Assembly (NCBI RefSeq): GCF_001044255.1
Contig: NZ_JYNX01000058.1
Location: forward strand, 229,161 to 278,293
Direction of reading: 5' to 3'
DNA length: 49,133 bases
Source: Mycolicibacterium chubuense
GTDB taxonomy: Bacteria > Actinomycetota > Actinomycetes > Mycobacteriales > Mycobacteriaceae
Under the pieces are notes generated by a model that saw only the letters and a program-made list of their open reading frames with translations, was not told the DNA's origin and did no database searches. The position numbers and the translations under genes are program-made. Position 1 is the first letter of the stretch. Each line of letters begins with the position of its first letter. Positions 6,045 to 43,701 of the stretch are shown here, piece by piece.

Positions 6045-6138
6045 AGCAGCGGCGATTTTTCTACGGGTACCGGCCAGCGGTGCCCGTGGTCTAGCTGCTT
6101 CCCCAGAGCCCCGCGGTCCGCTTCCGGATCCGGGGCTC
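6045..6138 (+). promoter_or_regulatory. Structured 5' leader upstream of chorismate mutase
   Basis: Three nested or successive inverted repeats precede the chorismate mutase gene. An outer stem AGCAGC (6045-6050)/GCTGCT (6094-6099) encloses a nine-base stem (6063-6071 with 6079-6087, one G-U pair). A further eight-base stem follows: GAGCCCCG (6106-6113) with CGGGGCTC (6131-6138). The last hairpin ends 26 bases before the preferred start at 6165. It could be an attenuator, a riboregulatory leader or a small RNA. No long T tract follows it. The function is unknown. Confidence 0.35.
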
Positions 6139-6164
6139 GTCTCTTGTGTGAGGCCCGATACCGG

Positions 6165-6473
6165 ATGAGACCAGACCAGTCACACAACGAGAATCCGGAG
6201 AACGACGACATGACGACAGACACCGCGCAGACACCCGACATTGATGAGCTGCGCCAGGAGATCGACCGTCTCGATGCGACCATCCTCGAGGCCGTCCAGC
6301 GACGCACCGAGGTCTCGCAGATGATCGGCAAGGCCCGGATGGCCTCCGGCGGCACCCGCCTGGTGCACAGCCGCGAGATGAAGGTCATCGAGCGCTACAG
6401 CGTGCTCGGCTCCGAGGGCAAGAACCTCGCGATGCTGCTGCTGCGCCTGGGCCGCGGCCGCCTCGGCCACTGA
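6165..6473 (+). CDS. Intracellular chorismate mutase (AroQ-delta type)
   Basis: Converts chorismate to prephenate for Phe/Tyr synthesis. It is homologous to Rv0948c, a low-activity enzyme activated by complex formation with DAHP synthase AroG. It has 102 aa, almost entirely the helical AroQ domain: EIDRLDATILEAVQRRTEVSQMIGKAR, then SREMKVIERY. The C-terminus RLGRGRLGH is the conserved tail that contacts AroG in the M. tuberculosis protein. A later ATG at 6210 has a nearer Shine-Dalgarno-like CCGGAGAA. The 6165 start is chosen because the N-terminal MRPDQSHNENPE resembles the start of Rv0948c as remembered. Confidence 0.92.
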   Translation: MRPDQSHNENPENDDMTTDTAQTPDIDELRQEIDRLDATILEAVQRRTEVSQMIGKARMASGGTRLVHSREMKVIERYSVLGSEGKNLAMLLLRLGRGRLGH

Positions 6474-6481
6474 GTTCCTGC

Positions 6482-6530
6482 GATTTCGGCGTGGCTGGTC
6501 GCGCTGAGCGCGACCGAGCACGCCGAAATC
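6482..6530. terminator. Long near-symmetric hairpin, bidirectional terminator
   Basis: GATTTCGGCGTG (6482-6493) pairs perfectly with CACGCCGAAATC (6519-6530). Inside it GGTCGCGC (6497-6504) pairs with GCGCGACC (6508-6515) across a three-base apical loop. It lies between the convergent chorismate mutase and acyltransferase genes and overlaps the acyltransferase stop. A diverged relative sits at 11763-11811. It lacks T tracts, as is common in mycobacteria. Confidence 0.6.
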
Positions 6531-8544
6531 ACCGGGTCTTGACCGCGTCGACCAGCCACGGCGTCAGCCACTCGACCGCTTCGGGCGTGGGGTGCACGCC
6601 GTCGCTGCGCACCCGCAGGCCGTCGACCTTGGTCTGGTAGTAGCCGTTGGGGCTGAGCTTGCGGTTCAGGTCGAGCACCGAGACGTTGCGCCGCGGCTCG
6701 ACGACGCTGCGCAGCAACGCATTCCACGCGTCGACTCGCTTGGGCTGATCCTCGGGGTAGAGGCTGCCGTCGGCCTTCTCCGCCCGCCGGTTGTAGGGCT
6801 CGGTCGTGACGACGATGCGGGCGCCCGTCGAGCCCAGGATGTCCAGCGCACGGGTCAGCTCACCGCGCAGATACGCGTCGTAGCCCGGCTCCCCGATGTG
6901 CGTCCACCGGCCCTCGTTCATCCGGTCGACCACCTCCCAGCGCCCGACGATCAGCAGCACCACGTCGGGCTTCTCGTAGCCGATCCGCTGGGCCCAGCGC
7001 GCCGGCCAGGAGTCGCACTCCGGCTTCTGCGGCAGGTCCTGTCCGACGTAGGTGTACGGCCCGCCGCGGGCGATGCCGCAGCCGATGGTGGTGAAGTCGG
7101 CGAACTCCACCCCGGGCGTCGCCGGCAGGTACCGCATCATCGTCCACGCGATCGAATCCCCGAACACCGCCACGCGGACGTCGCCGGGGGCGCGCTGCCG
7201 CGCGGGACGCGTCACCGCGACGGGCACCTCCGGGCCCACCAGCGCCGCGGAATCGATCAGCGGCCCCGGGCCGGGCTTGGGGAACGGCACCCCGGCGGGC
7301 AGCACGGTCGTCGTTACCACCGCGGCCGTCGCCGCGGTTGCCGCCGCGAGCCGCAACATCGGCACCGTCGTCGGCCGCCAATCCCGGATCGGCTGCTCGA
7401 TCAGCCACCACGACACGGCCGCGACGGCGACGGTCGCCGCGCACCGCAGCGCGAACAGCTTCCACCCCTCCGAACCGGTGCGTTCGCCGTTGAGCACCAG
7501 GAAGATCGGCCAGTGCCACAGGTACACGCCGTAGGAGATCGCCCCGAGGCCCACGAGTGGACCCATCGACAGCATGCGGGCGACGGGCCCGGTCTGGTCG
7601 AGCGCGACCGGCGCAATCACCAGCACCGCGGCCAGCGCGACGACGATCAGCAGCCCGCCGCGGAACTCCGCGGCCGTGCCCGTCGCCAGGTGCGCCGCCG
7701 TGGCGAGCACCACCAGCCCGATCACCGGCACCAGCCAGGCCAGCCAACGGGCCCAGCGGGAGCGCAACGTCACCAGACCGGCGGTCATCCCGCGCCAGTC
7801 CCGCACCAGCAGCGCCGCGGCCGCCGCACCCACCAGCAGCGCCTGCACCCGGGTGTCGGTGCCGAAGTACACCCGGTTCAGCGAGTCGTCGGAGGACAGC
7901 AGGATCGCCGCGGCCGCCGATCCGAGGGCGCCGAGCGCCGCGAGCGTGAACACCGCCGCGCGGACCATCCGCGTCGACACCGGCACACCGCGTCGGTACG
8001 CCAACGCGGCCAGGCCCGCGAGGATCCCCGCCAGCAGCAGCGGCCACAGCAGGTAGTACTGCTCCTCGACGCCGAGCGACCAGGTGTGCTGCAGCGGCGA
8101 CGGCGGCGCACCCTCAGAGAAGTAGTCGGTCCGCGCGGCGACGAACGCCCAGTTCGACATCCAGAAGAACGTCGCGACGGCCTCGTCGCGCAGGCCCGCC
8201 GTCGACTCCGGGGCGAACAGGTCGCGCAGGGCCACCACGGCCAGGACCATGACCAGGAGGGCGGGCAGGAGCCGGCGCGCCCGCCGGACCCAGAATGCCT
8301 TGAGCCCGATCCGGCCGGTGCGCGCCGTCTCGTCGAGCAGCAGCGAGGTGATCAGGAACCCGCTGAGCACGAAGAAGACGTCCACGCCGAGGAAACCGCC
8401 GGGCAGCCCGGGGACGCCGCCGTGGTCGGCGAGCACCAGCGCCACGGCGATCGCACGTACCCCGTCGAGCGCCGGAATGGCTTGTCCCGGGCCGACATAG
8501 CGGCGTGGGCCCACCCGGATCGGCGCCGCACTCACGGGTGTCAC
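6529..8544 (-). CDS. OafA-type membrane acyltransferase with SGNH domain
   Basis: Predicted O-acetyl/acyltransferase modifying a cell-envelope glycan. Residues ~20-370 form an acyltransferase-3 domain with about ten membrane helices, opening ALDGVRAIAVALVLADHGG and containing GVDVFFVLSGFLITSLLLDE. The C-terminal ~220 residues form an extracytoplasmic SGNH hydrolase-like domain, with VFGDSIAW for the Ser block and DGVHPTPEAVEW for the Asp-His block. The 671-aa length fits the fused acyltransferase/SGNH class. Start is GTG 8544 with AGGAGGG about ten bases upstream. The acceptor and acyl donor cannot be told from sequence. Confidence 0.87.
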   Translation of the reverse strand: MTPVSAAPIRVGPRRYVGPGQAIPALDGVRAIAVALVLADHGGVPGLPGGFLGVDVFFVLSGFLITSLLLDETARTGRIGLKAFWVRRARRLLPALLVMVLAVVALRDLFAPESTAGLRDEAVATFFWMSNWAFVAARTDYFSEGAPPSPLQHTWSLGVEEQYYLLWPLLLAGILAGLAALAYRRGVPVSTRMVRAAVFTLAALGALGSAAAAILLSSDDSLNRVYFGTDTRVQALLVGAAAAALLVRDWRGMTAGLVTLRSRWARWLAWLVPVIGLVVLATAAHLATGTAAEFRGGLLIVVALAAVLVIAPVALDQTGPVARMLSMGPLVGLGAISYGVYLWHWPIFLVLNGERTGSEGWKLFALRCAATVAVAAVSWWLIEQPIRDWRPTTVPMLRLAAATAATAAVVTTTVLPAGVPFPKPGPGPLIDSAALVGPEVPVAVTRPARQRAPGDVRVAVFGDSIAWTMMRYLPATPGVEFADFTTIGCGIARGGPYTYVGQDLPQKPECDSWPARWAQRIGYEKPDVVLLIVGRWEVVDRMNEGRWTHIGEPGYDAYLRGELTRALDILGSTGARIVVTTEPYNRRAEKADGSLYPEDQPKRVDAWNALLRSVVEPRRNVSVLDLNRKLSPNGYYQTKVDGLRVRSDGVHPTPEAVEWLTPWLVDAVKTR

Positions 8545-30978: not shown

Positions 30979-31006
30979 TCACTGACATGTCAAGATCACT
31001 GACATG
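30979..31006 (+). repeat. Direct repeat overlapping LAL regulator start
   Basis: TCACTGACATG occurs at 30979-30989 and again at 30996-31006, 17 bases apart; the second copy contains the regulator's ATG. The first copy opens a six-codon mini-ORF (MSRSLT) whose TGA overlaps that ATG as ATGA, which could couple translation. Confidence 0.5.
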
Positions 31007-33745
31007 AGGGGCAGACCTCTCGTCGGGCGGCAAGATGAACAGCGCCGACTGGCTGAGCTGTGCGACCGTGCCCGGGCAGGCGAGAGCGGCGTCCTGGTTG
31101 TTCATGGTGAACCCGGCATCGGAAAGACCGCACTCCTGGCGGACGCACTCGCGAAGGCCGACGAGCTTCGCACCATCCGCGTCAGCGGTGCGGAGTCGGA
31201 GATGGAACTCGCCTATGCCGCGGTGCAGCAGGTGTGCGGCCCCATCGTCACTCACCTGGACCGGTTGCCGGACCCGCAGAAGAACGCACTGCAAGTGGCG
31301 TTGGGCTTGCAGGAGGGTGCGACGCCCGACCGCCTCCTGGTGAATCTGGCGGTGCTGACCCTGCTCGGAGAGGCCGGCGCCGAGCGCCCGACGCTCTGCA
31401 TCATCGACGACGCGCAGTGGGTGGACCGCGCGTCACTGCAGGCGCTGACGTTCGCCGCACGTCGGCTGCTCGCCGACCCGACCGCGATGGTCTTCGCCAC
31501 CCGCACGCCGGAAGGCCCGCAGGAACTGAAGGGACTCCCCGAACTGCACCTGGGCAGACTCGCCCATACCCACGCCAGCGCACTGCTGTCCGACGTCATG
31601 CCGGGCCAGTGGGACGACACCGTCCGGGAGACCATCCTGGCCGAAGCGGACGGAAACCCCCTCGCGCTGCTGGAATTCGGCCGGGCCATGGCACCCGCGG
31701 CATGGGCGGGCGGGTACGGACTCGCCCCGGCCGCGACGTCGGTCGCGAAGCGGATCGAGGGAGAGTACGGCCAACGCCTGGGTGAGTTGCCGCCGCCGAC
31801 GCGCACCCTTCTGCTCCTCGCTGCCGCGGAGCCCACCGGTGACCCGGCATGGCTGTGGACGGCAGCCACGCGGCTCGGCCTCGACTCCGACGCAGTCGTT
31901 CCGGCGGAACGCAGCGGGCTGATCACTGTCGAGTCGCGCTTGCGCTTCCGCCATCCCCTGGTCCGGTCAGCTGTCTATCGCCACGCGTCCCTGCCCGAGC
32001 GGCGGCAAGTCCACGCCGCGCTGGCCGATGCGATCACGGGTCCGGCCGGTGAGGAGCACCGCGCCTGGCATCGCGCCCACTCGACGAGCGCACCCGACGA
32101 GACCGTCGCTGTGGACCTGATGGAATCCGCGGAGCGGGCGCGGCGTCGCGGTGGAGCAGCGGCCGCTGCGGCGTTCCTGGCCTACGCCGTCGAACTGACC
32201 CCCGACCCGGTCCGTCGCGCCGAACGCGCACTCGAGGCGGCACTGTCCAAGCTGGATGCCGGTGATCCAGAAGGGGCAACGCGGTTGCTGGTGGCAGTGG
32301 CGGGTACCGAGGACGAACTCCTCAGCGCCCGTGTGGATCTGATGAAGGCCAAGATCGCCTTCGCCGCGCAACGGGGACGGGACGCACCTCCGCTGCTGTT
32401 GGCCGCCGCGGAGAAGTTGTGCCCGTTGGATCCCACCCTCGCACGCGAGACCTATCTCGACGCATTGATGGCGGCGATGATCGTGGGCCGCCTCTTCGCT
32501 GACGAGTGGTCGTCGGCAGCAGCGATCGCTTCCGCCGCGCGACGTGCGCCACCACCCTCCGGCCGGGCGACAGCCGCCGACCTGCTCCTCGAGGGGATCG
32601 TTGTGCGATTCACCGAAGGGCACGCCGCCGCTGCACCCGTACTGCAGCAGGCCATCGGGCAGTACCTGAGGGATGACGAGGCCGGCGTCGCAGATCCGCG
32701 GTCACACGACATCACCCTGCGCGTTCTCCTCGATCTGTTCGAACAGGACACCTACAGCTCACTCAATGCCCGTCAACTCGAATTGCTCCGGGCCGCAGGC
32801 GAGTTGACCGTCCTGCCCGCCGCCTTGACGACCTATGCGGGGGTGTGTGTGACCTCAGGCAACTTCGCCGAAGCCGCGGATCTGCTCGAGCAGTCGGATG
32901 CCATCTCCATAGCGACAGGTGCGCCGCCGCACCGCTCCATCCAGACCTATCTCGCTGCCTGCCGCGGACAAGAGGCGCTCGGCAGGGAACTCGCGCGGGA
33001 CACCATCGCGGACGCGACCGCGCGTGGCGAAGGCAGCGAGATCGCCGTTGTGCTGTTCTCGCTGGCCATCCTGCACAACGGACTCGGACAGTACGACGAG
33101 GCGCTGACCGCATGCACGTCGGCGACGGAATACGAGGATGTCGGCATGTACGGCCATGTTCTCAACGAGATGGTCGAGGCGGCCGTCCGGTCCGGCGACA
33201 GGAGTACCGCCGAAGCTGCCGCTGCACAGGTGATCGAGCGAGCCGAAGCAACCAGAACCGCAACCGCGCTGGGATACGCGGCACGCGCGAGGGCGCTGAC
33301 GGCGACCGGCCCGGCCGCCGAGAACGAGTATGACGCCGCAATCAGGGAATTCGAGCGCTCACCGCTGGCGGTCATGGCCGCGCGCACGCACCTGGTCTTC
33401 GGTGAGTGGCTGCGCCGCGAGAATCGCCGAGCCGACGCACGCAACGAATTGCGCGTCGCCTACGAGAGGTTCCTGCACATGGGAGCCGACGGCTTTGCCG
33501 AGCGCGCGCACCGGGAACTCCGGGCGGCGGGCGAGACCTTCCCGAAGGAGCGGGGCAACGCAACGACGGTGAGTTTGACGAAACAGGAAAGCTATATCGC
33601 CCGTCTGGCGGGCGACGGCTACAGCAATTCCGAGATCGCTAGCCATCTGTTCATCAGTCCGCGGACCGTCGAATGGCATCTCGGCAGGATCTTCGCCAAG
33701 CTCGGGGTGACGTCACGTCGCGAGTTGCGGCGGCTCAGAGAGTGA
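31004..33745 (+). CDS. LAL-type LuxR family transcriptional regulator
   Basis: Large ATP-binding regulator of the LuxR family (MalT-like), 913 aa. The N-terminal AAA/STAND ATPase has Walker A HGEPGIGKTALL near residues 34-45 and Walker B TLCIIDDAQWVD near 130-141. The middle ~500 residues are helical TPR-like repeats. The C-terminal LuxR helix-turn-helix is at ~850-908 (SLTKQESYIARLAGDGYSNSEIASHLFISPRTVEWHLGRIFAKLGV). Such proteins are usually ATP- and inducer-dependent activators. Divergent placement makes the mdlC operon its likely target. A hairpin overlaps its stop. Confidence 0.9.
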   Translation: MRGRPLVGRQDEQRRLAELCDRARAGESGVLVVHGEPGIGKTALLADALAKADELRTIRVSGAESEMELAYAAVQQVCGPIVTHLDRLPDPQKNALQVALGLQEGATPDRLLVNLAVLTLLGEAGAERPTLCIIDDAQWVDRASLQALTFAARRLLADPTAMVFATRTPEGPQELKGLPELHLGRLAHTHASALLSDVMPGQWDDTVRETILAEADGNPLALLEFGRAMAPAAWAGGYGLAPAATSVAKRIEGEYGQRLGELPPPTRTLLLLAAAEPTGDPAWLWTAATRLGLDSDAVVPAERSGLITVESRLRFRHPLVRSAVYRHASLPERRQVHAALADAITGPAGEEHRAWHRAHSTSAPDETVAVDLMESAERARRRGGAAAAAAFLAYAVELTPDPVRRAERALEAALSKLDAGDPEGATRLLVAVAGTEDELLSARVDLMKAKIAFAAQRGRDAPPLLLAAAEKLCPLDPTLARETYLDALMAAMIVGRLFADEWSSAAAIASAARRAPPPSGRATAADLLLEGIVVRFTEGHAAAAPVLQQAIGQYLRDDEAGVADPRSHDITLRVLLDLFEQDTYSSLNARQLELLRAAGELTVLPAALTTYAGVCVTSGNFAEAADLLEQSDAISIATGAPPHRSIQTYLAACRGQEALGRELARDTIADATARGEGSEIAVVLFSLAILHNGLGQYDEALTACTSATEYEDVGMYGHVLNEMVEAAVRSGDRSTAEAAAAQVIERAEATRTATALGYAARARALTATGPAAENEYDAAIREFERSPLAVMAARTHLVFGEWLRRENRRADARNELRVAYERFLHMGADGFAERAHRELRAAGETFPKERGNATTVSLTKQESYIARLAGDGYSNSEIASHLFISPRTVEWHLGRIFAKLGVTSRRELRRLRE

Positions 33746-34528: not shown

Positions 34529-35563
34529 ATGACCTCAGCAGTGTTGTTCGACCGCCCCGGTCCACCCGATGTCCTGCGTTGGCGACTCGTGGATCCTGTA
34601 CGTCCTCGCCCCGGCGAGGTGGTCATCAGGGTGGCCGCCGCCGGCGTCAACAACGCCGACCTCATGCAGCGCCGGGGGCAGTATCCCGTGCCGGCCCGGG
34701 CGCCCCGCCCCCTGGGCTTGGAATGCTCAGGCACGATCACCGCCCTCGGTACTGACGTGACGGCCTGGTCGGTGGGCGACAGGGTGTGCGCGCTTCTCGA
34801 CGGCGGCGGCTATGCCGACGAAGTCGCGGTGCCCGCCACCCAGGTGATGCCAATCCCCGCCGGCCTCAGCGACATCGAGGCGGCGGCCGTCCCCGAGGTC
34901 GCCGCCACCGTCTACTCCAACCTCGCCATGGTCGCCCGGTTGACCGCAGGCCAGACGGTGCTGATCCACGGCGCGGGCGGCGGCATCGGCACCTTCGCGA
35001 TCCAGTGGGCCTCGGCGATCGGAGCGCGCGTCATCACCACCGCAGGCAGCGCGACCAAGACGCGTGCCGGCCTCGAGATGGGGGCAGACGTCGCGATCGA
35101 CTACCGCTGCGAGGACTTCGTCGCTGCCACGCAGGCCGCGACGGAGGGCCGCGGGGTCGACGCGATCCTGGACGTGGTCGGTGCGGACTATCTCGCCCGC
35201 AACGTCGAATGCCTTGCTCCCGACGGGCACCTGGTCATCATCGGCGGCGATACCGCATCGGCACCGCTCGACCTCGGACTGCTGATGTCCAAGCGGGCCA
35301 GTGTCACGGCGACGATGCTGCGAGCCCGGCCCGCTCAGCAGAAGGCGGAGATCATCGCCGGGGTGACGCGAGATGTGCTGCCGCTGTTCGACAGCGGCGC
35401 CGTCCGCGTCGTGGTCGACACCATCGTGCCCATCGCACAGGCCGCTCGCGCCCATGAGCTGATGGAATCCGGGCGCACCGTGGGCAAAGTCATTCTCGAC
35501 AACCGGCACCGAACGGTCACCCGGGCTGTCCGGGATTCAGGTGCCGGCACCTCCGTCGAGTAG
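34529..35563 (+). CDS. Zinc-independent quinone oxidoreductase (MDR family)
   Basis: NAD(P)H-dependent medium-chain reductase of the QOR/PIG3 group, 344 aa. N-terminal GroES-like domain: GVNNADLMQRRGQYP near residues 40-54, then PLGLECSG. The Rossmann domain has HGAGGGIGTFAIQWA near 150-164. Cys/His zinc ligands of alcohol dehydrogenases are missing, as expected for this group. Start ATG 34529 follows GGGAGAGAACGG. Its last 27 bases overlap the 3' end of a convergent membrane-protein gene. Confidence 0.87.
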   Translation: MTSAVLFDRPGPPDVLRWRLVDPVRPRPGEVVIRVAAAGVNNADLMQRRGQYPVPARAPRPLGLECSGTITALGTDVTAWSVGDRVCALLDGGGYADEVAVPATQVMPIPAGLSDIEAAAVPEVAATVYSNLAMVARLTAGQTVLIHGAGGGIGTFAIQWASAIGARVITTAGSATKTRAGLEMGADVAIDYRCEDFVAATQAATEGRGVDAILDVVGADYLARNVECLAPDGHLVIIGGDTASAPLDLGLLMSKRASVTATMLRARPAQQKAEIIAGVTRDVLPLFDSGAVRVVVDTIVPIAQAARAHELMESGRTVGKVILDNRHRTVTRAVRDSGAGTSVE

Positions 35564-36190
35564 CCAATGGTGACGCATGCCCATTGCCCGTTCCATCGCG
35601 CCGACCACCGCGCCGAATCCCAACGCGAGATTGAGCCATACCGGAAGAGGCAAAGGCGACACGAAGGTTCCGAATTTTTCTGAAATGAAGGGAATCTCGG
35701 AAATCGGAGCTGCGGCCTGCAGCATGTTGAGCCCTACTCCGATGAGCAGCATGAGCACCGAGACCGCACCGATGAACCCACTCGCGAGGGGATGCGCGTG
35801 TGCGAAACGCATACGCCGCCCCTCGGCGGACGTCGGATCGGGATCGAGTCGGCGCTCGGTGCCGTCATGGGCAACGAAGTGGCAGCGCCTCAGGCCGACC
35901 TGGCTGGTGCGGACCTCGATGTGGCCGTGCGCGACGTGGAATCGAGCGGGAACCTTCGACTGTGCCCGAAGCTGCCCATCGAGGTAGAGCCCCGCCGTGA
36001 CGACGCCTGTACGAGCGTCACCACCGTGCTTCACTTCGATGGTGTGCAGGACCTGTCGCCCGCCGACCGGGAGTGCGATCGACATGACCGATCGTCGCGT
36101 CATCTGCCACCAGCGGAAGGGCTTGAGCGGGCGCCCGTCGCCTGGCTTCACACGCTTGGTGAGCCGCCGTTCGTTCCAGCTCGGGCTCAC
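35537..36190 (-). CDS. Hypothetical membrane protein coupled to CPBP protease
   Basis: Unrecognised 217-aa protein. The first ~130 residues are basic and soluble, with a beta-rich stretch (SIALPVGGRQVLHTIEVKHGG). Two hydrophobic helices (about 140-160 and 185-205) lie near the C-terminus. GTG 36190 overlaps the stop of the CPBP gene as GTGA, so the two are translationally coupled and probably work together, for example as substrate or partner of the protease (inference). Its 3' end overlaps the convergent quinone oxidoreductase gene by 27 bases. Confidence 0.7.
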   Translation of the reverse strand: MSPSWNERRLTKRVKPGDGRPLKPFRWWQMTRRSVMSIALPVGGRQVLHTIEVKHGGDARTGVVTAGLYLDGQLRAQSKVPARFHVAHGHIEVRTSQVGLRRCHFVAHDGTERRLDPDPTSAEGRRMRFAHAHPLASGFIGAVSVLMLLIGVGLNMLQAAAPISEIPFISEKFGTFVSPLPLPVWLNLALGFGAVVGAMERAMGMRHHWLLDGGAGT

Positions 36191-37143
36191 TGCTCCAGCC
36201 CCGCCGCCGGGTGGACCGCAGGCGTGCGCGCAGGTCCACTCTTGCGGGTCATCCACCACACCGTCGCGGTGATGACGACCAGCGCGGCGCTGGGCACCAG
36301 GTTCGCCGCCGAGCCGACCGCGTCACCTCGATTCGCGAGCTGGGCGCCGATGTCGAGGTGCAGAGTCGTGCCGAGCACGAGGAACGCAAGGTTGTAGACG
36401 CCGTGGAGGACGACGGCGACCTCGAGGCCGCCGGTGCGCCACGTGACGATCGCCGTCGATGAGAACAGGAGAAGGTAGGACGTCAGCAGAAACGGATCGA
36501 GCGTGCCGTGGGCGAGTGAGAACAGCACCGTCGTCCCGACGATGCCGAGGATCGCGCCGGAGCGCGCACTCGGCGCCCAGCCGCCGAGTACACGAAACAT
36601 CACGCCGCGGAGGCCATACTCTTCACCGGCTGCGGCAAGGGGGGTGAGCACCATGCCGATGACGAAGAACGCCACGAGATCCGCGGTCGCCCAGGGAACG
36701 CTGCCGCTTTCATCCACAACGACGACGGCGACCGCGATCAGTACCAGGGGTCCGAAAACGAGCAGTGCTCGACCGAACACTCCGTATCGGAAGCGCCCCG
36801 CCACAGAGTGCAACGACCTCGCCGGCACGCCGTAGAGCACACGCTGCAGCAGCATGCAGTACGGGATCAACAAGGCCAACGACAGCGCGCCGGCTGCCTG
36901 CTTCAACGGTGACGAGGGACCGGAACGACCGAACAACTCCCGGTCGACGATCACCGATATCGCGTCCAGAAGCACTGCGAAGCCGATCATCCCGATCACC
37001 AGCAACGCGATGGCCACGATGCCACGCAGGATTCCGCGAGGCGCTCCCGCGTACACGCGGTGATACTCGACGCCGGCCGGGACCCTCGGCATGGGTACGG
37101 GATCATCACCTCGCAGGATCCAGCACTGGGTCATTAGATTCAT
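36187..37143 (-). CDS. CPBP-family intramembrane metalloprotease (CAAX/Abi)
   Basis: A 318-aa polytopic membrane protein with about eight helices. The CPBP/Abi active-site motifs are present: E-E-x-x-x-R in GEEYGLRG near residue 173, F-S-L-A-H near 210, and H-G-V-Y-N near 248. Family members are Rce1-type proteases or act in bacteriocin immunity and envelope regulation. The promoter faces the TetR gene across 269 bases that hold two copies of a palindromic operator, so it may belong to that regulon. Confidence 0.85.
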   Translation of the reverse strand: MNLMTQCWILRGDDPVPMPRVPAGVEYHRVYAGAPRGILRGIVAIALLVIGMIGFAVLLDAISVIVDRELFGRSGPSSPLKQAAGALSLALLIPYCMLLQRVLYGVPARSLHSVAGRFRYGVFGRALLVFGPLVLIAVAVVVVDESGSVPWATADLVAFFVIGMVLTPLAAAGEEYGLRGVMFRVLGGWAPSARSGAILGIVGTTVLFSLAHGTLDPFLLTSYLLLFSSTAIVTWRTGGLEVAVVLHGVYNLAFLVLGTTLHLDIGAQLANRGDAVGSAANLVPSAALVVITATVWWMTRKSGPARTPAVHPAAGLEQ

Positions 37144-37342
37144 CGTCTGCCCCTTCGATGATCGGCGTGTTGTCAGAACGCGGGTAGGACGTATTGGTCT
37201 GCGCGCCGGGTGTTTTCGCTCATCTCGTGTTTCGTCGGTCGAAGCGCATGCGAAATCTCCTTGGTCGTGTCGTCACGCACGGGTCGGCAGCCGAACTCTC
37301 ACCTGCTTCTCGTCGCCAAACCGACGTCGGATCGACGGAGTT

Positions 37343-37359
37343 CTAGTACGCTGTACTAG
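37343..37359. promoter_or_regulatory. TetR-type operator, site 1 at tetR/CPBP promoter
   Basis: A perfect 7-3-7 palindrome: CTAGTAC, GCT, GTACTAG. It is 53 bases upstream of the TetR gene start. Near-identical copies occur upstream of the class C beta-lactamase gene. Confidence 0.72.
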
Positions 37360-37371
37360 TCCCGCAACAAA

Positions 37372-37388
37372 GTATCACAGTGTGCTAA
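37372..37388. promoter_or_regulatory. TetR-type operator, site 2 at tetR/CPBP promoter
   Basis: GTATCAC, AGT, GTGCTAA has the same 7-3-7 layout as site 1 with 5 of 7 arm matches. Read on the minus strand it resembles site 2 at the beta-lactamase promoter. Site centres are 29 bases apart. Confidence 0.5.
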
Positions 37389-37412
37389 GAACGGAGGGGA
37401 GGTGCTGACCCG

Positions 37413-38015
37413 ATGAGCGAGCCGACGAAACACAGCACGCGAGAGAAGATCCTGATCGCCGCGGCGACGATGCTCGGGGAGGATCCGACGTCCCGGCTGA
37501 GTGTGCGCGCCGTCGCCGCGCGCGCCGGGGTCAGTACCGGGTCTCTCCGCCACTTCTTCCCGACTCAGCAGGCGCTGATCGACACCGTCATCGCCGGACT
37601 CTACGAACTCGACATCCCTGACGACCCGATGCACGACACCACCCGGGACCCGGGCGACCGTCTGGTGGCCTGCTTGCAGCTGCTGCTGTCACAGGTGGGT
37701 ACGGGCGAGCGGGCACGCGAGCACTGGCGCGCACTCCACGACGCGTACGTCGCATCGCCACCATCCGCGGACGCGACCCATGCCTTTCTCGCGCTCGAAC
37801 GCCTCACCCTGGACTACATCGCGCGGTGGCTCAGCACGTTGCGCGACGAAGGAGCACTCGTGTCCGGCGATCTCGATGAGCAGGCGCGGTTCCTCAACAC
37901 CGTGATCAATGGACTTTCCTTCGAGCGCGCCCTCCCCGGTGACCGTGAACGGCTTTCCCTCGAGGGTCATACACTCCGCATTGCCGCTGACAGCATCCTG
38001 CAGCGCAGAGCGTGA
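37413..38015 (+). CDS. TetR-family regulator of the AmpC/CPBP group
   Basis: A 200-aa TetR regulator. The DNA-binding domain is at ~8-55 (TREKILIAAATMLGEDPTSRLSVRAVAARAGVSTGSLRHFFPTQQALI). The C-terminal ligand domain includes the ERLTLDYIARWLSTLRDEG helix and ends in SILQRRA. Two operator-like palindromes precede it, implying autoregulation, and the same sequence occurs twice before the convergent beta-lactamase gene. The inducer is unknown; a cell-wall or beta-lactam signal would make sense (inference). Confidence 0.87.
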   Translation: MSEPTKHSTREKILIAAATMLGEDPTSRLSVRAVAARAGVSTGSLRHFFPTQQALIDTVIAGLYELDIPDDPMHDTTRDPGDRLVACLQLLLSQVGTGERAREHWRALHDAYVASPPSADATHAFLALERLTLDYIARWLSTLRDEGALVSGDLDEQARFLNTVINGLSFERALPGDRERLSLEGHTLRIAADSILQRRA

Positions 38016-38131
38016 ACTACCCTCGGGGAGCGCAAGAATCGAGACAGGCCGCGACGGATCTCGTTCACCCATCGTCGGCAAGGCGGATCCAGGGAACAGC
38101 GGCGGGGTGAGGCGTTGCCCCAGCGCCGTGG

Positions 38132-39406
38132 TCATTGCGCCACGTGGCCAACGCTGTCCAGAATCCGATAGGCTGCATCGACACGTGCGCTGTTCGGGTA
38201 GTTCTTGTTGGCCAGCAGAATGACTGCGAGTTGCTTCTGAGGGATGTAGGCGACGTAGGAACCGAAACCATTGGTGGAACCGGTCTTGTTGAACAGTGCC
38301 GTCGGATCAGGGGGAGACGGTGTGTCCAGCCACTCGATCGGCTGCGGCTGAGAGGCCATGGCGTCGGAATTACCTGCGATCAAAGCGGTTTCGGTGACGG
38401 GACGTGGGTAGATCTCCCAGCCCAGGCCTTGCGTCATGCCGTTCACTCGGTAGTAGCCGGTTTGAGTTGTCGCGATCGCGCGGCGCCACGGGTCATCGCG
38501 GCCCTCGGGCTGCATGGCGGCGGTGACGAATTGGACGAGATCGTGCGTGGTCGTCTTGATGCCGTAAGTCTCGGCGTCCAAGGCACCGGGTGTCACCCGT
38601 GTCGGTGCGTCGGTCTTCGTGTATCCCTGTGCGTAGTGACCCATTTCGTTACTCGGAATCTGAAGGTAGGTGTCGTCGAGACCCAGCTGGGGCAGCAGCG
38701 TGTTCTGCATGAGATCGGCGAAGGTGCCGCCCAGGCTTCGTGCCGCCAGGTAGCCGAACAGCCCCAAGCTGGGGTTCGAGTACAGCCGTCGACTTCCGGG
38801 CGGATATGACGGGTCCCAGTGCCGGAAGTAGTCGAGCATCGATCCGGCAGTATCCGCCTCGGCCGGGAACTGCAGCGGCAATCCGCCGGCCGAGTAGGTT
38901 CCGAGCTGCAGCATGCTGATGCGGTCGAACGCCGTGCCGTGCAGAGCGGGCCAATGGGTGCTGGCAGGCTCGGACAATGAAAACGTCCCTCGCGCCTGGG
39001 CGTAGCCGGCCAGCGTGGCGGTGAAGGTCTTACTCAACGACCCCACTTCGAAGAGCGTGTGGTCGTCGACGGGCGCATCCTCGCTCTTGGATGCGACGCC
39101 GTAGTCGAAGAAGTGCGGCTTTCCATCGACGATGACGGCGACGGCCATGCCGGGGATCGCATGCTCGGCCATGAGCTGGCGGATTGTCGGGTCGACGACG
39201 GATCCGACGGGGTCGACGTCGCGGACCTCTTGTACGGCACCACTGCACCCGGCCGCGACAATCACCAGGCACGCGAGCGCGGCGTTCAGCCTGGTGCTCG
39301 CGTTGAGCCGGCCGTGATGCGAGAAGAGGATTCCGGCTACGAATTCGAGCAGGCCGAACGGCCGCCACGTGGACAACCTTGACGTCGTATCAGAAGGTGA
39401 AGTCAA
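38132..39406 (-). CDS. AmpC-like class C beta-lactamase, probable lipoprotein
   Basis: Closely patterned on AmpC. GSLSK (nucleophile Ser and Lys) is near residue 122, the YSN motif (RRLYSNPSLGLFG) near 205, PGALDAETYG near 270, and the KTG triad in FNKTGSTNGFGSYVAYIP near 370, followed by LLANKNYPN as in enterobacterial enzymes. All catalytic motifs are intact, so cephalosporinase activity is plausible. A hydrophobic segment ending VAAGC (near 57) is a good lipobox. The TTG start at 39406 puts ~35 unusual residues before it; TTG 39376 is an alternative. Two TetR-type operators lie 35-83 bases upstream. Confidence 0.87.
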   Translation of the reverse strand: MTSPSDTTSRLSTWRPFGLLEFVAGILFSHHGRLNASTRLNAALACLVIVAAGCSGAVQEVRDVDPVGSVVDPTIRQLMAEHAIPGMAVAVIVDGKPHFFDYGVASKSEDAPVDDHTLFEVGSLSKTFTATLAGYAQARGTFSLSEPASTHWPALHGTAFDRISMLQLGTYSAGGLPLQFPAEADTAGSMLDYFRHWDPSYPPGSRRLYSNPSLGLFGYLAARSLGGTFADLMQNTLLPQLGLDDTYLQIPSNEMGHYAQGYTKTDAPTRVTPGALDAETYGIKTTTHDLVQFVTAAMQPEGRDDPWRRAIATTQTGYYRVNGMTQGLGWEIYPRPVTETALIAGNSDAMASQPQPIEWLDTPSPPDPTALFNKTGSTNGFGSYVAYIPQKQLAVILLANKNYPNSARVDAAYRILDSVGHVAQ

Positions 39407-39440
39407 CTCTGCTGCGCCTTTTCGTTTCAGGAAGCCAGCA

Positions 39441-39457
39441 CTAGCACGCTGTACTAG
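39441..39457. promoter_or_regulatory. TetR-type operator, site 1 at beta-lactamase promoter
   Basis: CTAGCAC, GCT, GTACTAG: a 7-3-7 palindrome differing from the site at 37343-37359 by one base. Confidence 0.7.
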
Positions 39458-39472
39458 CGAGGAGACCCAACA

Positions 39473-39489
39473 CTAGCACGCTGTGACAA
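39473..39489. promoter_or_regulatory. TetR-type operator, site 2 at beta-lactamase promoter
   Basis: CTAGCAC, GCT, GTGACAA: the left arm is identical to site 1 and the right arm is weaker. Its centre is 32 bases from site 1, about three helical turns. It lies upstream of the beta-lactamase gene and 35 bases downstream of the ligD stop. Confidence 0.6.
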
Positions 39490-39524: not shown

Positions 39525-41795
39525 CTACCGCGATGATTCCCATTCGACCTCGTCGGGCTCCTTGTCCGGCCGCAGACCTCGCCAGCTCGCCTGGCGCAGC
39601 CGGTCGTCGCCCGTGCGCTCGCTGTACCGAACCTCGCCGACCAGCTCCGGACGGACGAAGGTGACACCCTTGGCGTCCTGTTTGGGAAGCGTTGTGGCGA
39701 AAGGTGATTCGTCGGTATGCAGTGGCTCGAGTGTCTTGCGGAGCGACGCCAGCTCCTTCTCGGAGAAGCCGGTGCCGACCCGGCCGACGAACTGCAGGCC
39801 GTCCTCAGTGGGGATGCCGAGCAACAGCGCACCCAGACCGCTCGTGCGCCCACCGTTTCCCTCGCGCCAGCCTCCGATCACCACCTCCTGGGTGTTCCAC
39901 AGTTTGTCCTTGATCCACGCCGCGGACCGACGTCCGGGCTGGTAGGTGGAGTCCCGTTTCTTGGCGACCACCCCCTCCCAACGCTTGTCGGCCGCATAGG
40001 CCAGCGCGTCGGCGCCGTCACCGTCGATCTGCGGTGGCACGATGAGCCCGCCCTGGTCGGCGAGCGCCTCGAGCAGCCGCCTGCGGTCGGCGTATTTGGC
40101 CCGCATCAGCGATCGGCCGTCGAGGAAGACGATGTCGAAGGCCCAGAACTCGACCCGGGTGGACCGCTTTCGGTTCTGCATCTCGCGGAAGCTGGGGACG
40201 CCGGATTCGTCGAGAGCCACCGCCTCCCCGTCGAGAATGACGTGGTGATCGGCCAGATCGGCGGCCACCGACCGGAATTGGGGGTATTCGGCGGTGACGT
40301 CGCGGCCGCGGCGGGACCGGACGGCCAGTGTGCCGTGGTCCACCTCGACGAGAACCCGGTATCCGTCCCACTTGCCCTCGAACGCCCACTGCTTCTCGGG
40401 AAGTCGCTCGACCGATCCCTCGGTGCTCAGCATCGGAAGCAGTTCGGAGAACGCGGCGCGCTTCTGGTCTTTCATCCGGTGCGCCAACCAGTTCTTGCCG
40501 TCGGTCTGGATCAGTGCGTAGCGGCCCTCGATCTTCGCCCCGTGCAGCGTGACGATCACCTCGCCGCCGCGGGCGGGACCGTCGGGCGGGTTGTCGTTGA
40601 ACTTCTCGGTCTCGTAGGTGCCGGTATCCCAGATGTAGACCTCGCCGCCGCCGTACTCGCCCTTGGGGATCTCGCCGGCGAACGTCAGGTACTCCATCGG
40701 ATGGTCCTCCGTGTGCACGGCGAGGTGGTTCTCCGACGGGGAGTCGGGGAGGTTCTTCGGCACCGCCCAGCTGACGAGGACACCGTCACGTTCCAGCCGG
40801 AAGTCGTAGTGCAGCCGGCGCGCATGATGTTCCTGGATGACGAAGGCGTCGTTGCCGCCGACCCGCGGCGCGTCGGCGGGCACGGGCTCGGGGGTCTTCG
40901 CCGTGTCGCGCATCCCGCGGTAGGTGGTCAGCCGATCGGGGGCGGGCAGCGCCGGATCGAGGTCGGCCAGCAGGTCCCCGTCCCGGTCCAGCCGGTCGAG
41001 CACCTCGTCGAAGGTCAGGTGGCGCAGCTCGGGATCGGCGATCTCGTCCCAGGTGCGCGGTGCGGCGACCGTCGGATGGTCCCGTCCACGAAGCGAATAC
41101 GGCGCGATGGTCGTCTTGTTCCCGTTGTTCTGGCTCCAGTCGAGGAAGACCTTCCCCTCGCGCAGGCTCTTCGTCATCGTCGCGGTGACCTTCGTGGGCA
41201 TCGTCTGCTCGAGTTGCACGGCCACGCGTTTGGCGAGCACCGACGCGCCGCGCGAACTGATGGGGTCGTCGAGCGGGACGTAGAGATGCAGCCCCTTGCT
41301 GCCGCTGGTCAGCGGGTACGTGCGCAGGCCGATGTCGGAGATCAGGTCGCGAACTTCGTGCGCGACCTCGCAGAGTTGCCGCATCGACACCCCCTCGCCG
41401 GGGTCGAGATCGAACACGATGCGCGTCGCGGGGCCCACCTTGTGATCGACGAAGCGCCATTGCGGCACATGCACTTCCAGCGCCGCCTGCTGCGCGATCC
41501 ACGCGAGCCCCTCGACGGTGTCGATGACCGGATAGGTGGTCGTGCCCGACTTGTGCGCGATCGTGCCGCGGTCCAGCCACTCCGGTGCCGAGGAGGCGAG
41601 TTGTTTTTCGAAGAAGGAGCCCTCGGCCACACCGTTGGGCCAGCGCTTGCGGGTCACCGCGCGTCCGGCGATGTGCGGCAGCATCGCGTCGGCCACCTCG
41701 ACGTAGTAGTCGAAGATCTCCGCCTTGGTGGTCCCCGTCGCCGGGTACAGCACCTTGTCCGGGTTGGTCAGCTTCACCCGGCCCACACGATCCAC
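39525..41795 (-). CDS. ligD: Multifunctional NHEJ DNA ligase D
   Basis: Repairs double-strand breaks with Ku. It has 756 aa with the mycobacterial domain order. The polymerase/primase is at ~1-290 (KVLYPATGTTKAEIFDYY, FDLDPGEGV with catalytic Asps, TSGSKGLHLYVPL). The 3'-phosphoesterase is at ~320-450 (FVIQEHHARRLHYDFRLERDGVL). The ATP-dependent ligase follows, with nucleotidyl-Lys motif EGKWDGYR near 475, and ends with the OB fold (GRVGTGFS). GTG 41795 is chosen because a TACCGT -10 box lies six bases upstream; GTG 41798 is equally in frame. Divergent from pfkB-ku. Confidence 0.96.
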   Translation of the reverse strand: MDRVGRVKLTNPDKVLYPATGTTKAEIFDYYVEVADAMLPHIAGRAVTRKRWPNGVAEGSFFEKQLASSAPEWLDRGTIAHKSGTTTYPVIDTVEGLAWIAQQAALEVHVPQWRFVDHKVGPATRIVFDLDPGEGVSMRQLCEVAHEVRDLISDIGLRTYPLTSGSKGLHLYVPLDDPISSRGASVLAKRVAVQLEQTMPTKVTATMTKSLREGKVFLDWSQNNGNKTTIAPYSLRGRDHPTVAAPRTWDEIADPELRHLTFDEVLDRLDRDGDLLADLDPALPAPDRLTTYRGMRDTAKTPEPVPADAPRVGGNDAFVIQEHHARRLHYDFRLERDGVLVSWAVPKNLPDSPSENHLAVHTEDHPMEYLTFAGEIPKGEYGGGEVYIWDTGTYETEKFNDNPPDGPARGGEVIVTLHGAKIEGRYALIQTDGKNWLAHRMKDQKRAAFSELLPMLSTEGSVERLPEKQWAFEGKWDGYRVLVEVDHGTLAVRSRRGRDVTAEYPQFRSVAADLADHHVILDGEAVALDESGVPSFREMQNRKRSTRVEFWAFDIVFLDGRSLMRAKYADRRRLLEALADQGGLIVPPQIDGDGADALAYAADKRWEGVVAKKRDSTYQPGRRSAAWIKDKLWNTQEVVIGGWREGNGGRTSGLGALLLGIPTEDGLQFVGRVGTGFSEKELASLRKTLEPLHTDESPFATTLPKQDAKGVTFVRPELVGEVRYSERTGDDRLRQASWRGLRPDKEPDEVEWESSR

Positions 41796-41801
41796 CACAT
41801 C

Positions 41802-41807
41802 ACGGTA
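41802..41807 (-). promoter_or_regulatory. -10 box for leaderless ligD transcript
   Basis: On the minus strand TACCGT is followed by six bases and GTG 41795. It lies only 19 bases from the opposite-strand -10 box of pfkB. Confidence 0.45.
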
Positions 41808-41826
41808 TTACCCGTTCCCCGACCGG

Positions 41827-41832
41827 TAGCGT
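41827..41832 (+). promoter_or_regulatory. -10 box for leaderless pfkB-ku transcript
   Basis: TAGCGT ends seven bases before the pfkB ATG at 41840. Promoters for ligD and pfkB-ku must overlap, since only 44 bases separate the two starts. Confidence 0.45.
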
Positions 41833-41839
41833 CGACACG

Positions 41840-42775
41840 ATGCGGGCACTGGTCATCGGCGAGGCGCTGATCGACATCGTCGAGCGCGACGGGAACGTCA
41901 CCGGGGAGTACGTCGGCGGCAGCCCCCTCAACGTCGCGGTCGGGTTGGGGCGGCTGGGCAGGCCGGTCGACTTCCTCACCCACATCGCGGCCGACTCCCG
42001 CGGACTGCGGATCCGCGACTACGTCGAAGCCTCTGGCGTGCAGTTGGTTTCGGGTAGCCTGTCCGCCGAGCGGACGCCGACGGCGCGGGCGATGCTGGAC
42101 CCCGCCGGGCGGGCCACCTACACCTTCGACATCGACTGGCGGCTCAGCGGTACGCCCGAGGCGGGACCCCCGGCGGTGCTGCACACCGGGTCGATCGCGA
42201 CCGTCCTCGAGCCCGGCTGCCTGGCCACCTCGGCACTGGTCGAGACGTACCGTCCGTCGGCGACGATCACCTTCGATCCGAACATCCGTCCCGCCCTGAT
42301 CGGCGATGCGGATGCGGCACGGTCCCGCATCGACCGGCTGCTCGAGCGGGCCGATGTCGTCAAGGTCAGCGACGAGGATCTGCGCTGGCTGGAGCCCGAG
42401 CGGCCGCCGGAGGAGGTCGCCGCGGCCTGGCTGGAGGCCGGCCCGTCGGTGGTGGTGGTGACCGAGGGCGCCGAGGGCGCGGTGGCGATGTGTCGGGCCG
42501 GGAAAGTCCGGGTACCTGCAGGAAATGTGCAGGTGGTGGACACCGTGGGCGCCGGAGACGCATTCATGACCGGGTTGATCGATGCGTTGTGGTCGCTCGA
42601 TCTGCTCGGCGCGGGGCGGCGCGCGCAGCTGCACGCCATCGACACCGACGCGCTCACCACCGCGGTCCGGACCGCGACGCTCACCGCGGCGGTCACCGTG
42701 ACCCGTGCCGGCGCCGACCTTCCCGACCGCGCCAGCCTCCGCCGCGCGGCCGAGTCTTCGGACATACTGAGCTGA
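41840..42775 (+). CDS. PfkB-family carbohydrate kinase (fructokinase-like)
   Basis: ATP-dependent ribokinase/fructokinase-fold enzyme, 311 aa. Signature 1 is GGSPLNVAVGLGRLG near residues 31-45. Signature 2 is DTVGAGDAFMTG near 234-245, with the catalytic base Asp. TFDPNIRPALI near 145 and VVVTEGAEGA near 205 are usual. The sugar specificity is uncertain. Its TGA shares one base with the ATG of ku (TGATG), so it is the first gene of a coupled pfkB-ku operon, an unexpected partner for DNA repair. Confidence 0.88.
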   Translation: MRALVIGEALIDIVERDGNVTGEYVGGSPLNVAVGLGRLGRPVDFLTHIAADSRGLRIRDYVEASGVQLVSGSLSAERTPTARAMLDPAGRATYTFDIDWRLSGTPEAGPPAVLHTGSIATVLEPGCLATSALVETYRPSATITFDPNIRPALIGDADAARSRIDRLLERADVVKVSDEDLRWLEPERPPEEVAAAWLEAGPSVVVVTEGAEGAVAMCRAGKVRVPAGNVQVVDTVGAGDAFMTGLIDALWSLDLLGAGRRAQLHAIDTDALTTAVRTATLTAAVTVTRAGADLPDRASLRRAAESSDILS

Positions 42776-43701
42776 TGCGATCCATTTGGAAGGGTTCGAT
42801 CGCCTTCGGCCTGGTCAATGTGCCGGTGAAGGTCTACAGCGCCACCCAGGATCACGACATCAAGTTCCACCAGGTGCACGCCAAGGACAACGGCCGCATC
42901 CGGTACAAGCGCGTCTGTGAGGTGGACGGCGAAGAGGTCGAGTACCGCGACATCGCACGCGCCTACGACTCCGACGACGGCCAGACGGTGATCATCACCG
43001 ACGACGACATCTCCACCCTTCCCGAAGAGCGCAGCCGCGAGATCGAGGTGCTCGAGTTCGTCCCCGCCAGTGACCTCGATCCGATGCTGTACGACCGCAG
43101 CTACTTCCTCGAACCCGACGGCAAGTCGTCGAAATCGTATGTCCTGCTTGCCAAGACGCTGATGGAGACGGATCGCGTCGCGATCGTCAACTTCGCGCTG
43201 CGCAACAAGACCCGGCTCGCCGCCCTGCGCGTCAAGGACTTCAGCAAGCGCGACGTGATGATGATCCACACACTGCTGTGGCCCGACGAGATCCGCGATC
43301 CCGACTTCCCGGTCCTCGACAAGGAAGTCGAGGTCAAACCCGCCGAACTGAAGATGGCCAGCCAGGTCGTCGACTCGATGACCGACGATTTCAACCCCGA
43401 CCGCTATCACGACGACTACCAGGAACATCTGCACGAGCTGATCCAGGCCAAGCTCGAGGGCGGCGAAGCGTTCACCACCGAGGAACAGCCCACCGAACTC
43501 GACGACACCGAGGACGTCTCGGATCTGCTGGCCAAGCTGGAGGCCAGCGTCAAGGCGCGCAAGGAACAGGGCGGCTCGAAGGAGCCGGCGAAGAAGGCGC
43601 CCGCGAAGAAGGCGGCGGCCAAGGCACCCGCCAAGAAATCGGCGGCGAAGAAGACCGCGGCCAAGAAGGCGCCGGCGAAAAAGGCCGCAGCCAAGAAATA
43701 G
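42775..43701 (+). CDS. ku: Bacterial Ku, NHEJ end-binding protein
   Basis: Homodimeric ring that binds DNA double-strand ends and recruits LigD. It has 308 aa: the Ku core (MRSIWKGSIAFGLVNVPVKVYSAT, VCEVDGEEVEYRDIARAY, FSKRDVMMIHTLLWPDEIRDP) spans ~1-250. An acidic LigD-contact region follows, then a ~45-residue lysine/alanine tail of KKAPAKKAAAK-type repeats. The low-complexity basic tail is typical of Ku in environmental mycobacteria and is absent from M. tuberculosis Ku; it allows DNA binding without free ends. Translationally coupled to pfkB. Confidence 0.97.
   Translation: MRSIWKGSIAFGLVNVPVKVYSATQDHDIKFHQVHAKDNGRIRYKRVCEVDGEEVEYRDIARAYDSDDGQTVIITDDDISTLPEERSREIEVLEFVPASDLDPMLYDRSYFLEPDGKSSKSYVLLAKTLMETDRVAIVNFALRNKTRLAALRVKDFSKRDVMMIHTLLWPDEIRDPDFPVLDKEVEVKPAELKMASQVVDSMTDDFNPDRYHDDYQEHLHELIQAKLEGGEAFTTEEQPTELDDTEDVSDLLAKLEASVKARKEQGGSKEPAKKAPAKKAAAKAPAKKSAAKKTAAKKAPAKKAAAKK

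What the first reader, a model, noticed from the sequence alone, without database searches (positions are those of the whole stretch)
37343..39489. Twin palindromic operators tie a TetR regulator to an AmpC beta-lactamase and a CPBP protease
Two 7-3-7 palindromes precede the TetR gene, and two copies of the same sequence precede the convergent class C beta-lactamase gene; the best pair differs by one base. Centre spacing is 29 and 32 bases. The first pair also faces the CPBP protease/membrane-protein operon. This is a compact, self-contained regulon that could sense cell-wall stress without the usual AmpR or BlaI circuits. Sequence identity is seen; regulation is inferred.
Basis: partly seen in the sequence, partly recalled or inferred. 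Interest (0 to 1): 0.75.

Follow-up and report, generated by a model that had tools for sequence, protein, structure and literature searches.

The report
Actinobacterial TetR regulon that captured a beta-lactamase
A small repressor and its paired DNA switches, conserved across many actinobacteria where they sit in front of little-known membrane-protein genes, have in this mycobacterial lineage also come to sit in front of an AmpC-type beta-lactamase gene.

Summary
The palindromes are real and are very probably operators of the TetR beside them. One site of each pair is strong (37343-37359, 39441-39457; 0 mismatches to a family consensus derived here, CTARYACNNNGTRYTAG); the other is degenerate (3 mismatches). 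Orthologous TetRs have such sites (up to 2 mismatches) just upstream in 77 of 80 named actinobacterial loci, two or more in 73. In 396 congeneric genomes the exact motif is in 20 of 23 with the TetR and 7 of 373 without.

The regulon is not self-contained: another contig of the same genome has a third pair, before a SpoIIM-family gene. The recurrent targets are three membrane proteins: MemB (no Pfam or NCBIfam family), CPBP protease, SpoIIM. The class C beta-lactamase is a lineage-specific recruit: its reading frame begins with a SpoIIM remnant, and 21 of 21 congeneric relatives (E<=1e-70) lack the operator.

Operator-TetR linkage rests on comparative sequence evidence. Repression, inducer and cell-wall-stress sensing are inferred or untested; nothing points to beta-lactams as the signal.

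The parts
37343..37359 (.). Strong operator O1 (CTAGTACGCTGTACTAG), between tetR and the CPBP-MemB operon
   Evidence: Perfect 7-3-7 palindrome, 0 mismatches to the family consensus; a 0-mismatch site at the same place in M. chlorophenolicum L048 and M. arenosum L050
37372..37388 (.). Weak second operator O2 in front of tetR (5 of 7 arm pairs, 3 mismatches)
   Evidence: the second site has 2 mismatches in M. chlorophenolicum and 1 in M. arenosum
37413..38015 (+). TetR-family regulator, 200 aa
   Evidence: Pfam TetR_N 3.4e-8; AlphaFold2 model of nine helices, mean pLDDT 87.5; orthologues
36187..37143 (-). CPBP (Rce1-like) membrane protease, 318 aa, first gene of the divergent operon
   Evidence: Pfam PF02517 3.1e-12
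35537..36190 (-). 'MemB', 217-aa membrane protein; its presumed GTG start overlaps the CPBP stop; the commonest recurrent neighbour of this TetR family
   Evidence: No Pfam or NCBIfam match; a relative lies in 57 of 80 named TetR loci; AlphaFold2 mean pLDDT 80.7, beta domain plus C-terminal helices; no PDB fold match at E<=0.001
37220..37262 (-). Probable remnant (Shine-Dalgarno stretch and a nine-codon frame) of a small gene that is intact (129 aa) in M. arenosum between the operators and CPBP
   Evidence: Read from the sequences printed; intact gene in L050 and in L141 of G225
38132..39406 (-). Class C beta-lactamase (TTG start); the first 18 codons, and probably up to about 38, derive from a lost SpoIIM gene
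   Evidence: NCBIfam NF033085 8.6e-158, above its cut-off; best PDB match 2qz6; motifs SLSK, YSN, KTG; SpoIIM remnant; dN/dS against M. chlorophenolicum 0.20 after codon 60 and 1.29 in the first 38
39441..39457 (.). Strong operator O3 (CTAGCACGCTGTACTAG) in front of the beta-lactamase
   Evidence: 0 mismatches to the family consensus; identical in M. chlorophenolicum; aligns with the SpoIIM operator of M. arenosum
39473..39489 (.). Weak second operator O4 (one good half-site, 3 mismatches)
   Evidence: the M. arenosum equivalent has 1 mismatch

Best explanation
The TetR dimer binds 17-bp operators (CTARYACNNNGTRYTAG), usually two or three in a row, and represses its own gene, the divergent CPBP-MemB operon, the class C beta-lactamase gene and, in trans, a SpoIIM-family gene on another contig. 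An unknown ligand, most likely an amphipathic or membrane-active compound, releases it. The conserved output is a set of envelope membrane proteins (MemB, CPBP protease, SpoIIM). The beta-lactamase was added in this lineage: it sat as second gene behind an operator-driven SpoIIM gene, whose body was later lost, leaving the enzyme directly behind the operators and fused in frame to the first SpoIIM codons. Shown by comparison: the operators, their linkage to the TetR, the recurrent neighbours, the SpoIIM remnant. Inferred: binding, repression, ligand release, trans control of SpoIIM, envelope protection, the order of events.
For: Linkage to the TetR: sites with two or fewer mismatches within 250 bp upstream of tetR in 77 of 80 named loci, two or more in 73 of 80; density 8.15 per kb there against 0.0265 per kb in the other 945 kb (before the start of L124 was corrected). 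In 396 congeneric genomes the exact motif occurs in 20 of 23 with the TetR (E<=1e-20) and 7 of 373 without (Fisher p 6.6e-25). SpoIIM operators depend on the TetR: this SpoIIM subfamily (E<=1e-30) is in 30 of 396 genomes; the locus has operators in 17 of 19 TetR-positive and 0 of 11 TetR-negative genomes. Targets in trans: own genome, a pair before SpoIIM at C73, with no TetR match at E<=1e-20 there; M. chlorophenolicum likewise. Mirror case: G342 has its TetR beside SpoIIM and a second pair before a CPBP-MemB operon elsewhere. Of 22 operator clusters away from an orthologous tetR promoter that were followed, 14 lead to MemB, CPBP or SpoIIM and 2 to the beta-lactamase. Beta-lactamase history: M. 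arenosum has operators, then SpoIIM, then a truncated beta-lactamase gene with overlapping stop and start; the window keeps the SpoIIM leader. The enzyme part is under purifying selection.
Against: No binding or expression data. The second site of each pair in the window is weak. The gap between the tetR and CPBP start codons is 269 bp; in PMC3511530 (passages read) three of four TetR-type regulators with more than 200 bp did not control the divergent gene, although here the strong operator itself is about 200 bp from CPBP. Most of the 17 operator-bearing SpoIIM loci are also the TetR's own promoter region, so they are not independent evidence for SpoIIM as a target. In G256 the SpoIIM gene lies off the TetR locus and has no operator. 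Three of 80 named TetRs lack sites at this threshold (L062, L066, L125). Six of the 22 followed clusters lead elsewhere (two to a PapA-like gene, two to hydrolases, one to a distant tetR paralogue, one to nothing recognised). At up to one mismatch the reversed control pattern is as common as or commoner than the true one in most genomes, so single one-mismatch sites say little.
Confidence: 0.82

Rival explanations
1. The TetR controls only itself and the CPBP-MemB operon; the sites before the beta-lactamase are fossils left by the lost SpoIIM gene and no longer matter for the enzyme.
For: The sites align with the SpoIIM promoter of M. arenosum; O4 is decayed; no other congeneric relative of the enzyme has operators (0 of 21).
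Against: O3 is intact with 0 mismatches, is identical in M. chlorophenolicum and ends about 35 bp before the start codon; the enzyme is under purifying selection.
Confidence: 0.2
2. A beta-lactam or peptidoglycan-fragment sensor: the TetR binds a wall fragment or drug and induces the beta-lactamase.
For: A class C enzyme stands behind the operator, and SpoIIM in endospore formers belongs to a peptidoglycan-remodelling complex (recalled; only the listing of PMC6221140 was seen).
Against: Among the loci examined, an intact beta-lactamase with operators was seen only in the window and M. chlorophenolicum, with a truncated copy in M. arenosum, whereas the TetR, operators and membrane-protein neighbours occur in many actinobacterial genera; the signal is therefore unlikely to be specific to beta-lactams.
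Confidence: 0.12
3. The palindromes are bound by another, more global regulator that also controls the tetR gene.
For: No binding data; two TetR clades of about 50% identity share one operator.
Against: Motif presence follows this TetR across 396 genomes, and 16 of 22 followed clusters away from the TetR promoter lead to the same genes (14 MemB, CPBP or SpoIIM; 2 beta-lactamase).
Confidence: 0.05

Closest known systems
TetR/tetA-type autoregulated divergent repressor (as described in PMC3511530, passages read)
   Same: Repressor gene divergent from a membrane-protein gene, with two palindromic operators between them
   Different: 17-bp 7-3-7 operator of another sequence, extra targets in trans (inferred), no efflux pump among the targets seen
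Mycobacterial TetR regulators with predicted motifs (PMC4482099, passages and section 11 read)
   Same: Comparative prediction of palindromic operators before divergent TetR genes
   Different: Its table lists 30 TetRs by Rv number; the words sporulation, CAAX and lactamase do not occur in its main text; its motif logos are images that could not be compared
AmpR-ampC and BlaI/BlaR circuits (recalled)
   Same: A regulator gene beside a beta-lactamase gene
   Different: TetR family instead of LysR or BlaI; convergent gene order; operators shared with membrane-protein genes
SpoIIM (PF01944) and CPBP (PF02517) families
   Same: Membership by Pfam score
   Different: Apparently regulated as a set with MemB by one TetR; their roles in actinobacteria are not known to me

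Membership tests
TetR family regulator | TetR_N helix-turn-helix domain | tested here: met
   PF00440 33.6 bits, cut-off 24; nine-helix AlphaFold2 model
TetR family regulator | Palindromic operator in its own promoter, conserved among orthologues | tested here: met
   77 of 80 named loci; by sequence only
TetR family regulator | Ligand-reversible repression | not testable with these tools
   Needs binding and reporter assays
Named TetR equivalogs (BetI, ScbR-binding, KstR, MtrR and others) | Score above the curated NCBIfam cut-off | tested here: not met
   Eight families listed, none above cut-off; best 30.8 bits against 201.3 for BetI
Class C beta-lactamase | NCBIfam NF033085 above cut-off; motifs SxxK, YxN, KTG | tested here: met
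   524.8 against 415 bits; SLSK at 123, YSN at 209, KTG at 374
Class C beta-lactamase | Hydrolysis of beta-lactams | not testable with these tools
   Needs an enzyme assay
AmpR-ampC circuit | LysR-type regulator adjacent and divergent | tested here: not met
   The adjacent genes are tetR (convergent) and ligD; not searched genome-wide
CPBP (Rce1-like) protease | PF02517 above cut-off | tested here: met
   47.1 against 22.4 bits
SpoIIM (third-locus gene) | PF01944 above cut-off | tested here: met
   30.5 against 26.9 bits for the C73 protein
Any known family for MemB | Match in Pfam, NCBIfam, PADLOC or PDB folds | tested here: not met
   None; no PDB fold match at E<=0.001

The most novel reading that the evidence does not exclude
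An undescribed envelope-protection regulon of Actinomycetota (MemB, CPBP, SpoIIM, sometimes secreted TAP-like hydrolases) is run by one horizontally spread TetR whose fixed operator lets an incoming copy take over resident targets. In this lineage it swallowed an AmpC gene, giving a TetR-controlled class C beta-lactamase that answers a membrane signal rather than beta-lactams.
Probability: 0.45. Interest if true: 0.72.

Novelty: new member of a known kind. Interest (0 to 1): 0.55.

Why it matters
It gives a clear operator sequence and a candidate regulon for a TetR found in many actinobacterial genera, and ties three membrane-protein families of poorly known function to one signal. It shows how a beta-lactamase gene can fall under an unrelated regulator by loss of the gene in front of it, and suggests how a repressor with a fixed operator can be lost at one locus and replaced by a distant relative elsewhere. 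The fixed operator also makes the inducer searchable by a simple binding-release assay.

Tried and rejected
Palindromy as evidence on its own: rejected, since the window has 8 perfect 7-3-7 palindromes.

Beta-lactamase as a conserved regulon member: rejected. Relatives at E<=1e-70 in 21 other congeneric genomes (46-52% identity) have no operator with up to 2 mismatches in the 2.7-4.1 kb held for each. The tblastn 'Bla' hit in L090 (28% identity, 6 kb from tetR) is judged unrelated; it is counted in the '3', so the count near tetR is 2 of 80 named loci (L048 intact, L050 truncated).

Defence-system reading of the CPBP and membrane genes: no PADLOC match for four proteins. Fold of MemB: no PDB match at E<=0.001; its function stays open. 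Plasmid origin: no match in the plasmid collection by megablast (near records may be left out).

Papers: nine searches; no title listed concerned this regulon or motif, but longer result lists were seen only in part (20 of 109, 15 of 719, 15 of 124 and 10 of 14). The search of motif letters was too unspecific to be informative.

Own-genome sites with 3 mismatches (five other places) were treated as background and not followed. Of the 7 TetR-negative genomes with an exact motif, four share one sequence (spacer CTA or its complement), two have other spacers, and G289 has the true type in a place where no target gene was recognised. Fisher p after dropping the six with other spacers is 1.6e-29.

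Limits: the 396 genomes are drawn evenly from a larger group; the TetR search there scored 8 candidates per genome and the beta-lactamase search 4, so 'without' means without at that depth. The lists contain single one-mismatch sites that were not followed, and the list was cut. L247, fetched, was not analysed. One search read the wrong end of minus-strand loci and was replaced; one search used a wrong start for L124, which one search corrects (76 and 72 became 77 and 73).

Full report
Observation. The four sites are at 37343-37359, 37372-37388, 39441-39457 and 39473-39489. The first of each pair is strong (0 mismatches to the family consensus derived below); the other has 3 mismatches. O1 and O3 differ by one base, and the spacings are 29 and 32. 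Perfect 7-3-7 palindromes occur 8 times in the window, so palindromy proves nothing, but the shared sequence does: 3 matches (one of them the same palindrome on the other strand) against 0.02 expected in shuffles. In the whole genome (G000, 5.95 Mb) only four sites have two or fewer mismatches: O1, O3 and a pair on contig C73; at 3 mismatches the reversed control pattern has 16 matches against 6 on the forward strand, so such hits are background.

Genes. tetR 37413-38015 (PF00440), CPBP 37143-36187 (PF02517), a 217-aa membrane protein called MemB here (no Pfam or NCBIfam family) whose presumed GTG start overlaps the CPBP stop, and a class C beta-lactamase 39406-38132 (NF033085, 524.8 against a cut-off of 415 bits). 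The nearest named relative of the locus is Mycolicibacterium chlorophenolicum (TetR 98%, beta-lactamase 92%); the species of the window itself was not established.

Third target. The C73 pair (25 bp apart) lies directly before a SpoIIM-family gene (PF01944, 30.5 against 26.9 bits). No TetR match at E<=1e-20 lies in the 20 kb of that contig that were fetched, and G000 has one such match in all, the window's. In G085 and M. vanbaalenii a SpoIIM gene of the same subfamily lies divergent from a TetR of about 50% identity to the window's, with the operators between and the same DUF4185 gene behind. In G000 the DUF4185 gene runs almost up to the operators and no tetR is between. M. chlorophenolicum shows the same SpoIIM pair, with no TetR hit in the 12 kb fetched. 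The TetR in the window is therefore the likely regulator of this SpoIIM gene in trans (inferred).

Operator and regulator travel together. Of 80 named loci returned for the TetR (the best 80 of 145), 77 have at least one site with two or fewer mismatches to CTARYACNNNGTRYTAG within 250 bp upstream, and 73 have two or three. Density is 8.15 per kb there against 0.0265 per kb in the other 945 kb. In 396 congeneric genomes, drawn from a larger group, the TetR is found in 23 (E<=1e-20, 8 candidates scored per genome) and the exact motif in 27: 20 of 23 with the TetR and 7 of 373 without (Fisher p 6.6e-25). Of the three TetR-positive genomes without an exact site, G229 and G196 (whose tetR is split over two frames) have pairs of one-mismatch sites, and G395, whose TetR match holds a stop codon, has none. 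The reversed control pattern has 0 to 2 exact matches per genome in the same search, and at one mismatch it is as common as or commoner than the true pattern in most genomes; the evidence therefore lies in the position and pairing of the sites, not in their number. In 18 named genomes examined for copy number, 16 have one such TetR and two have two (E<=1e-20).

Targets. In the 80 named loci (up to 12.6 kb each) a MemB relative is found in 57, CPBP in 30, SpoIIM in 17 and none of these in 8; the first divergent gene is MemB in 45, CPBP in 13, SpoIIM in 9, another small gene in 1 and something else or nothing recognised in 12. I followed 22 operator clusters that lie away from an orthologous tetR promoter. 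Fourteen lead to MemB (L066, L123, L114), CPBP (L083, L088, L089), SpoIIM (L050), SpoIIM on the own contig C73, CPBP-MemB in G342, SpoIIM in M. chlorophenolicum, a CPBP-family gene in G412 and in G416, CPBP in G449 and MemB in G466. Two lead to the beta-lactamase (window and L048). Six lead elsewhere: a PapA/condensation-like gene in L064 and in L062 (the latter with a degenerate tetR-like frame), TAP-like secreted hydrolases at two places of a Rhodococcus contig (L246), a distant tetR paralogue (L244), and nothing recognised in G289. Among the 12 'other' divergent genes are alpha/beta hydrolases (L080, L123) and DUF418 proteins (L093, L097).

Controls. The SpoIIM subfamily (E<=1e-30) is in 30 of 396 genomes: the locus has operators in 17 of 19 TetR-positive genomes and in 0 of 11 TetR-negative ones, three of which are partial matches. 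Most of the 17 are simply the TetR's own promoter region. Against the reading: G256 (SpoIIM off the TetR locus, no operator) and G395 (TetR with a stop codon, no operator).

The mirror case. G342 has its only TetR (52% to the window's) beside SpoIIM, and a second operator pair before a CPBP-MemB operon (77% and 74% identical to the window's) at a distant place with no TetR hit in the 6 kb fetched. The window genome has the opposite arrangement. A tree of 62 TetRs puts the two mycobacterial types in separate clades and groups some species against taxonomy (for example M. iranicum with Saccharopolyspora, support 98/77), as expected of horizontal transfer.

How the beta-lactamase came in. M. arenosum (L050) has the operators, then an intact SpoIIM gene, then a beta-lactamase gene that lacks its middle part, with the SpoIIM stop overlapping the beta-lactamase start. 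In the window and M. chlorophenolicum the operators and leader align with that SpoIIM promoter, but only pieces of the SpoIIM N-terminus remain (18 codons clearly, probably up to about 38), in frame with the beta-lactamase. The enzyme part has dN/dS 0.20 between the two species; the first 38 codons 1.29 (few sites). SpoIIM loss here may have been tolerated because of the C73 copy (inference). A small gene between the operators and CPBP in M. arenosum and G225 also seems to survive only as a nine-codon frame.

Mechanism. Like TetR/tetA, with two operators between divergent genes (PMC3511530, passages), the dimer most likely represses its own gene and its targets and is released by a ligand. Neighbouring sites are 13 or 24-35 bp apart, with single cases at 20 and 22 (up to 3 mismatches). 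The ligand is unknown. Because the beta-lactamase is private to this lineage, as far as examined, while the membrane-protein neighbours are general, I think a membrane-active signal more likely than a beta-lactam. None of this has been tested at the bench.

Novelty. In nine paper searches (listed in Tried and rejected, with the parts of the lists seen) no title concerned this regulon or motif. PMC4482099 (passages and section 11) predicted motifs for mycobacterial TetRs; its logos could not be read, so an overlap is not excluded. The kind (autoregulated TetR with paired operators) is known; the regulon, the MemB family and the beta-lactamase capture were not found described.

Noticed in passing
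39525-43701: A LigD gene lies next to a probable Ku gene at about 42490-43701 (recognised from the translation, recalled), a typical bacterial end-joining pair.
   Followed up: no
31004-33745 (+): A 913-aa protein that looks like a large ATP-binding LuxR-type regulator (from the translation; recalled, not searched).
   Followed up: no
L246 2620-2649 and 6889-6953: In a Rhodococcus contig the operators stand near secreted TAP-like alpha/beta hydrolase genes, a possible further arm of the regulon.
   Followed up: partly
L062 8274-8322 and 8420-8839: A degenerate tetR-like reading frame follows an operator pair, within a PapA/condensation-like frame.
   Followed up: no
L244 2971-3000: A distant tetR paralogue (32% identity) has a pair of overlapping variant operators 13 bp apart, which hints at drift in operator sequence.
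   Followed up: no
L154 1501-1517: Genome G289 has an exact true-type site but no such TetR and no recognised target gene near; unexplained, perhaps chance.
   Followed up: partly
L240 about 5800-6700: M. chlorophenolicum has about 0.9 kb, with a 160-aa frame that looks like a lipoprotein (recalled likeness), between the SpoIIM operators and the DUF4185 gene, where relatives have tetR and the window's genome has almost nothing.
   Followed up: no
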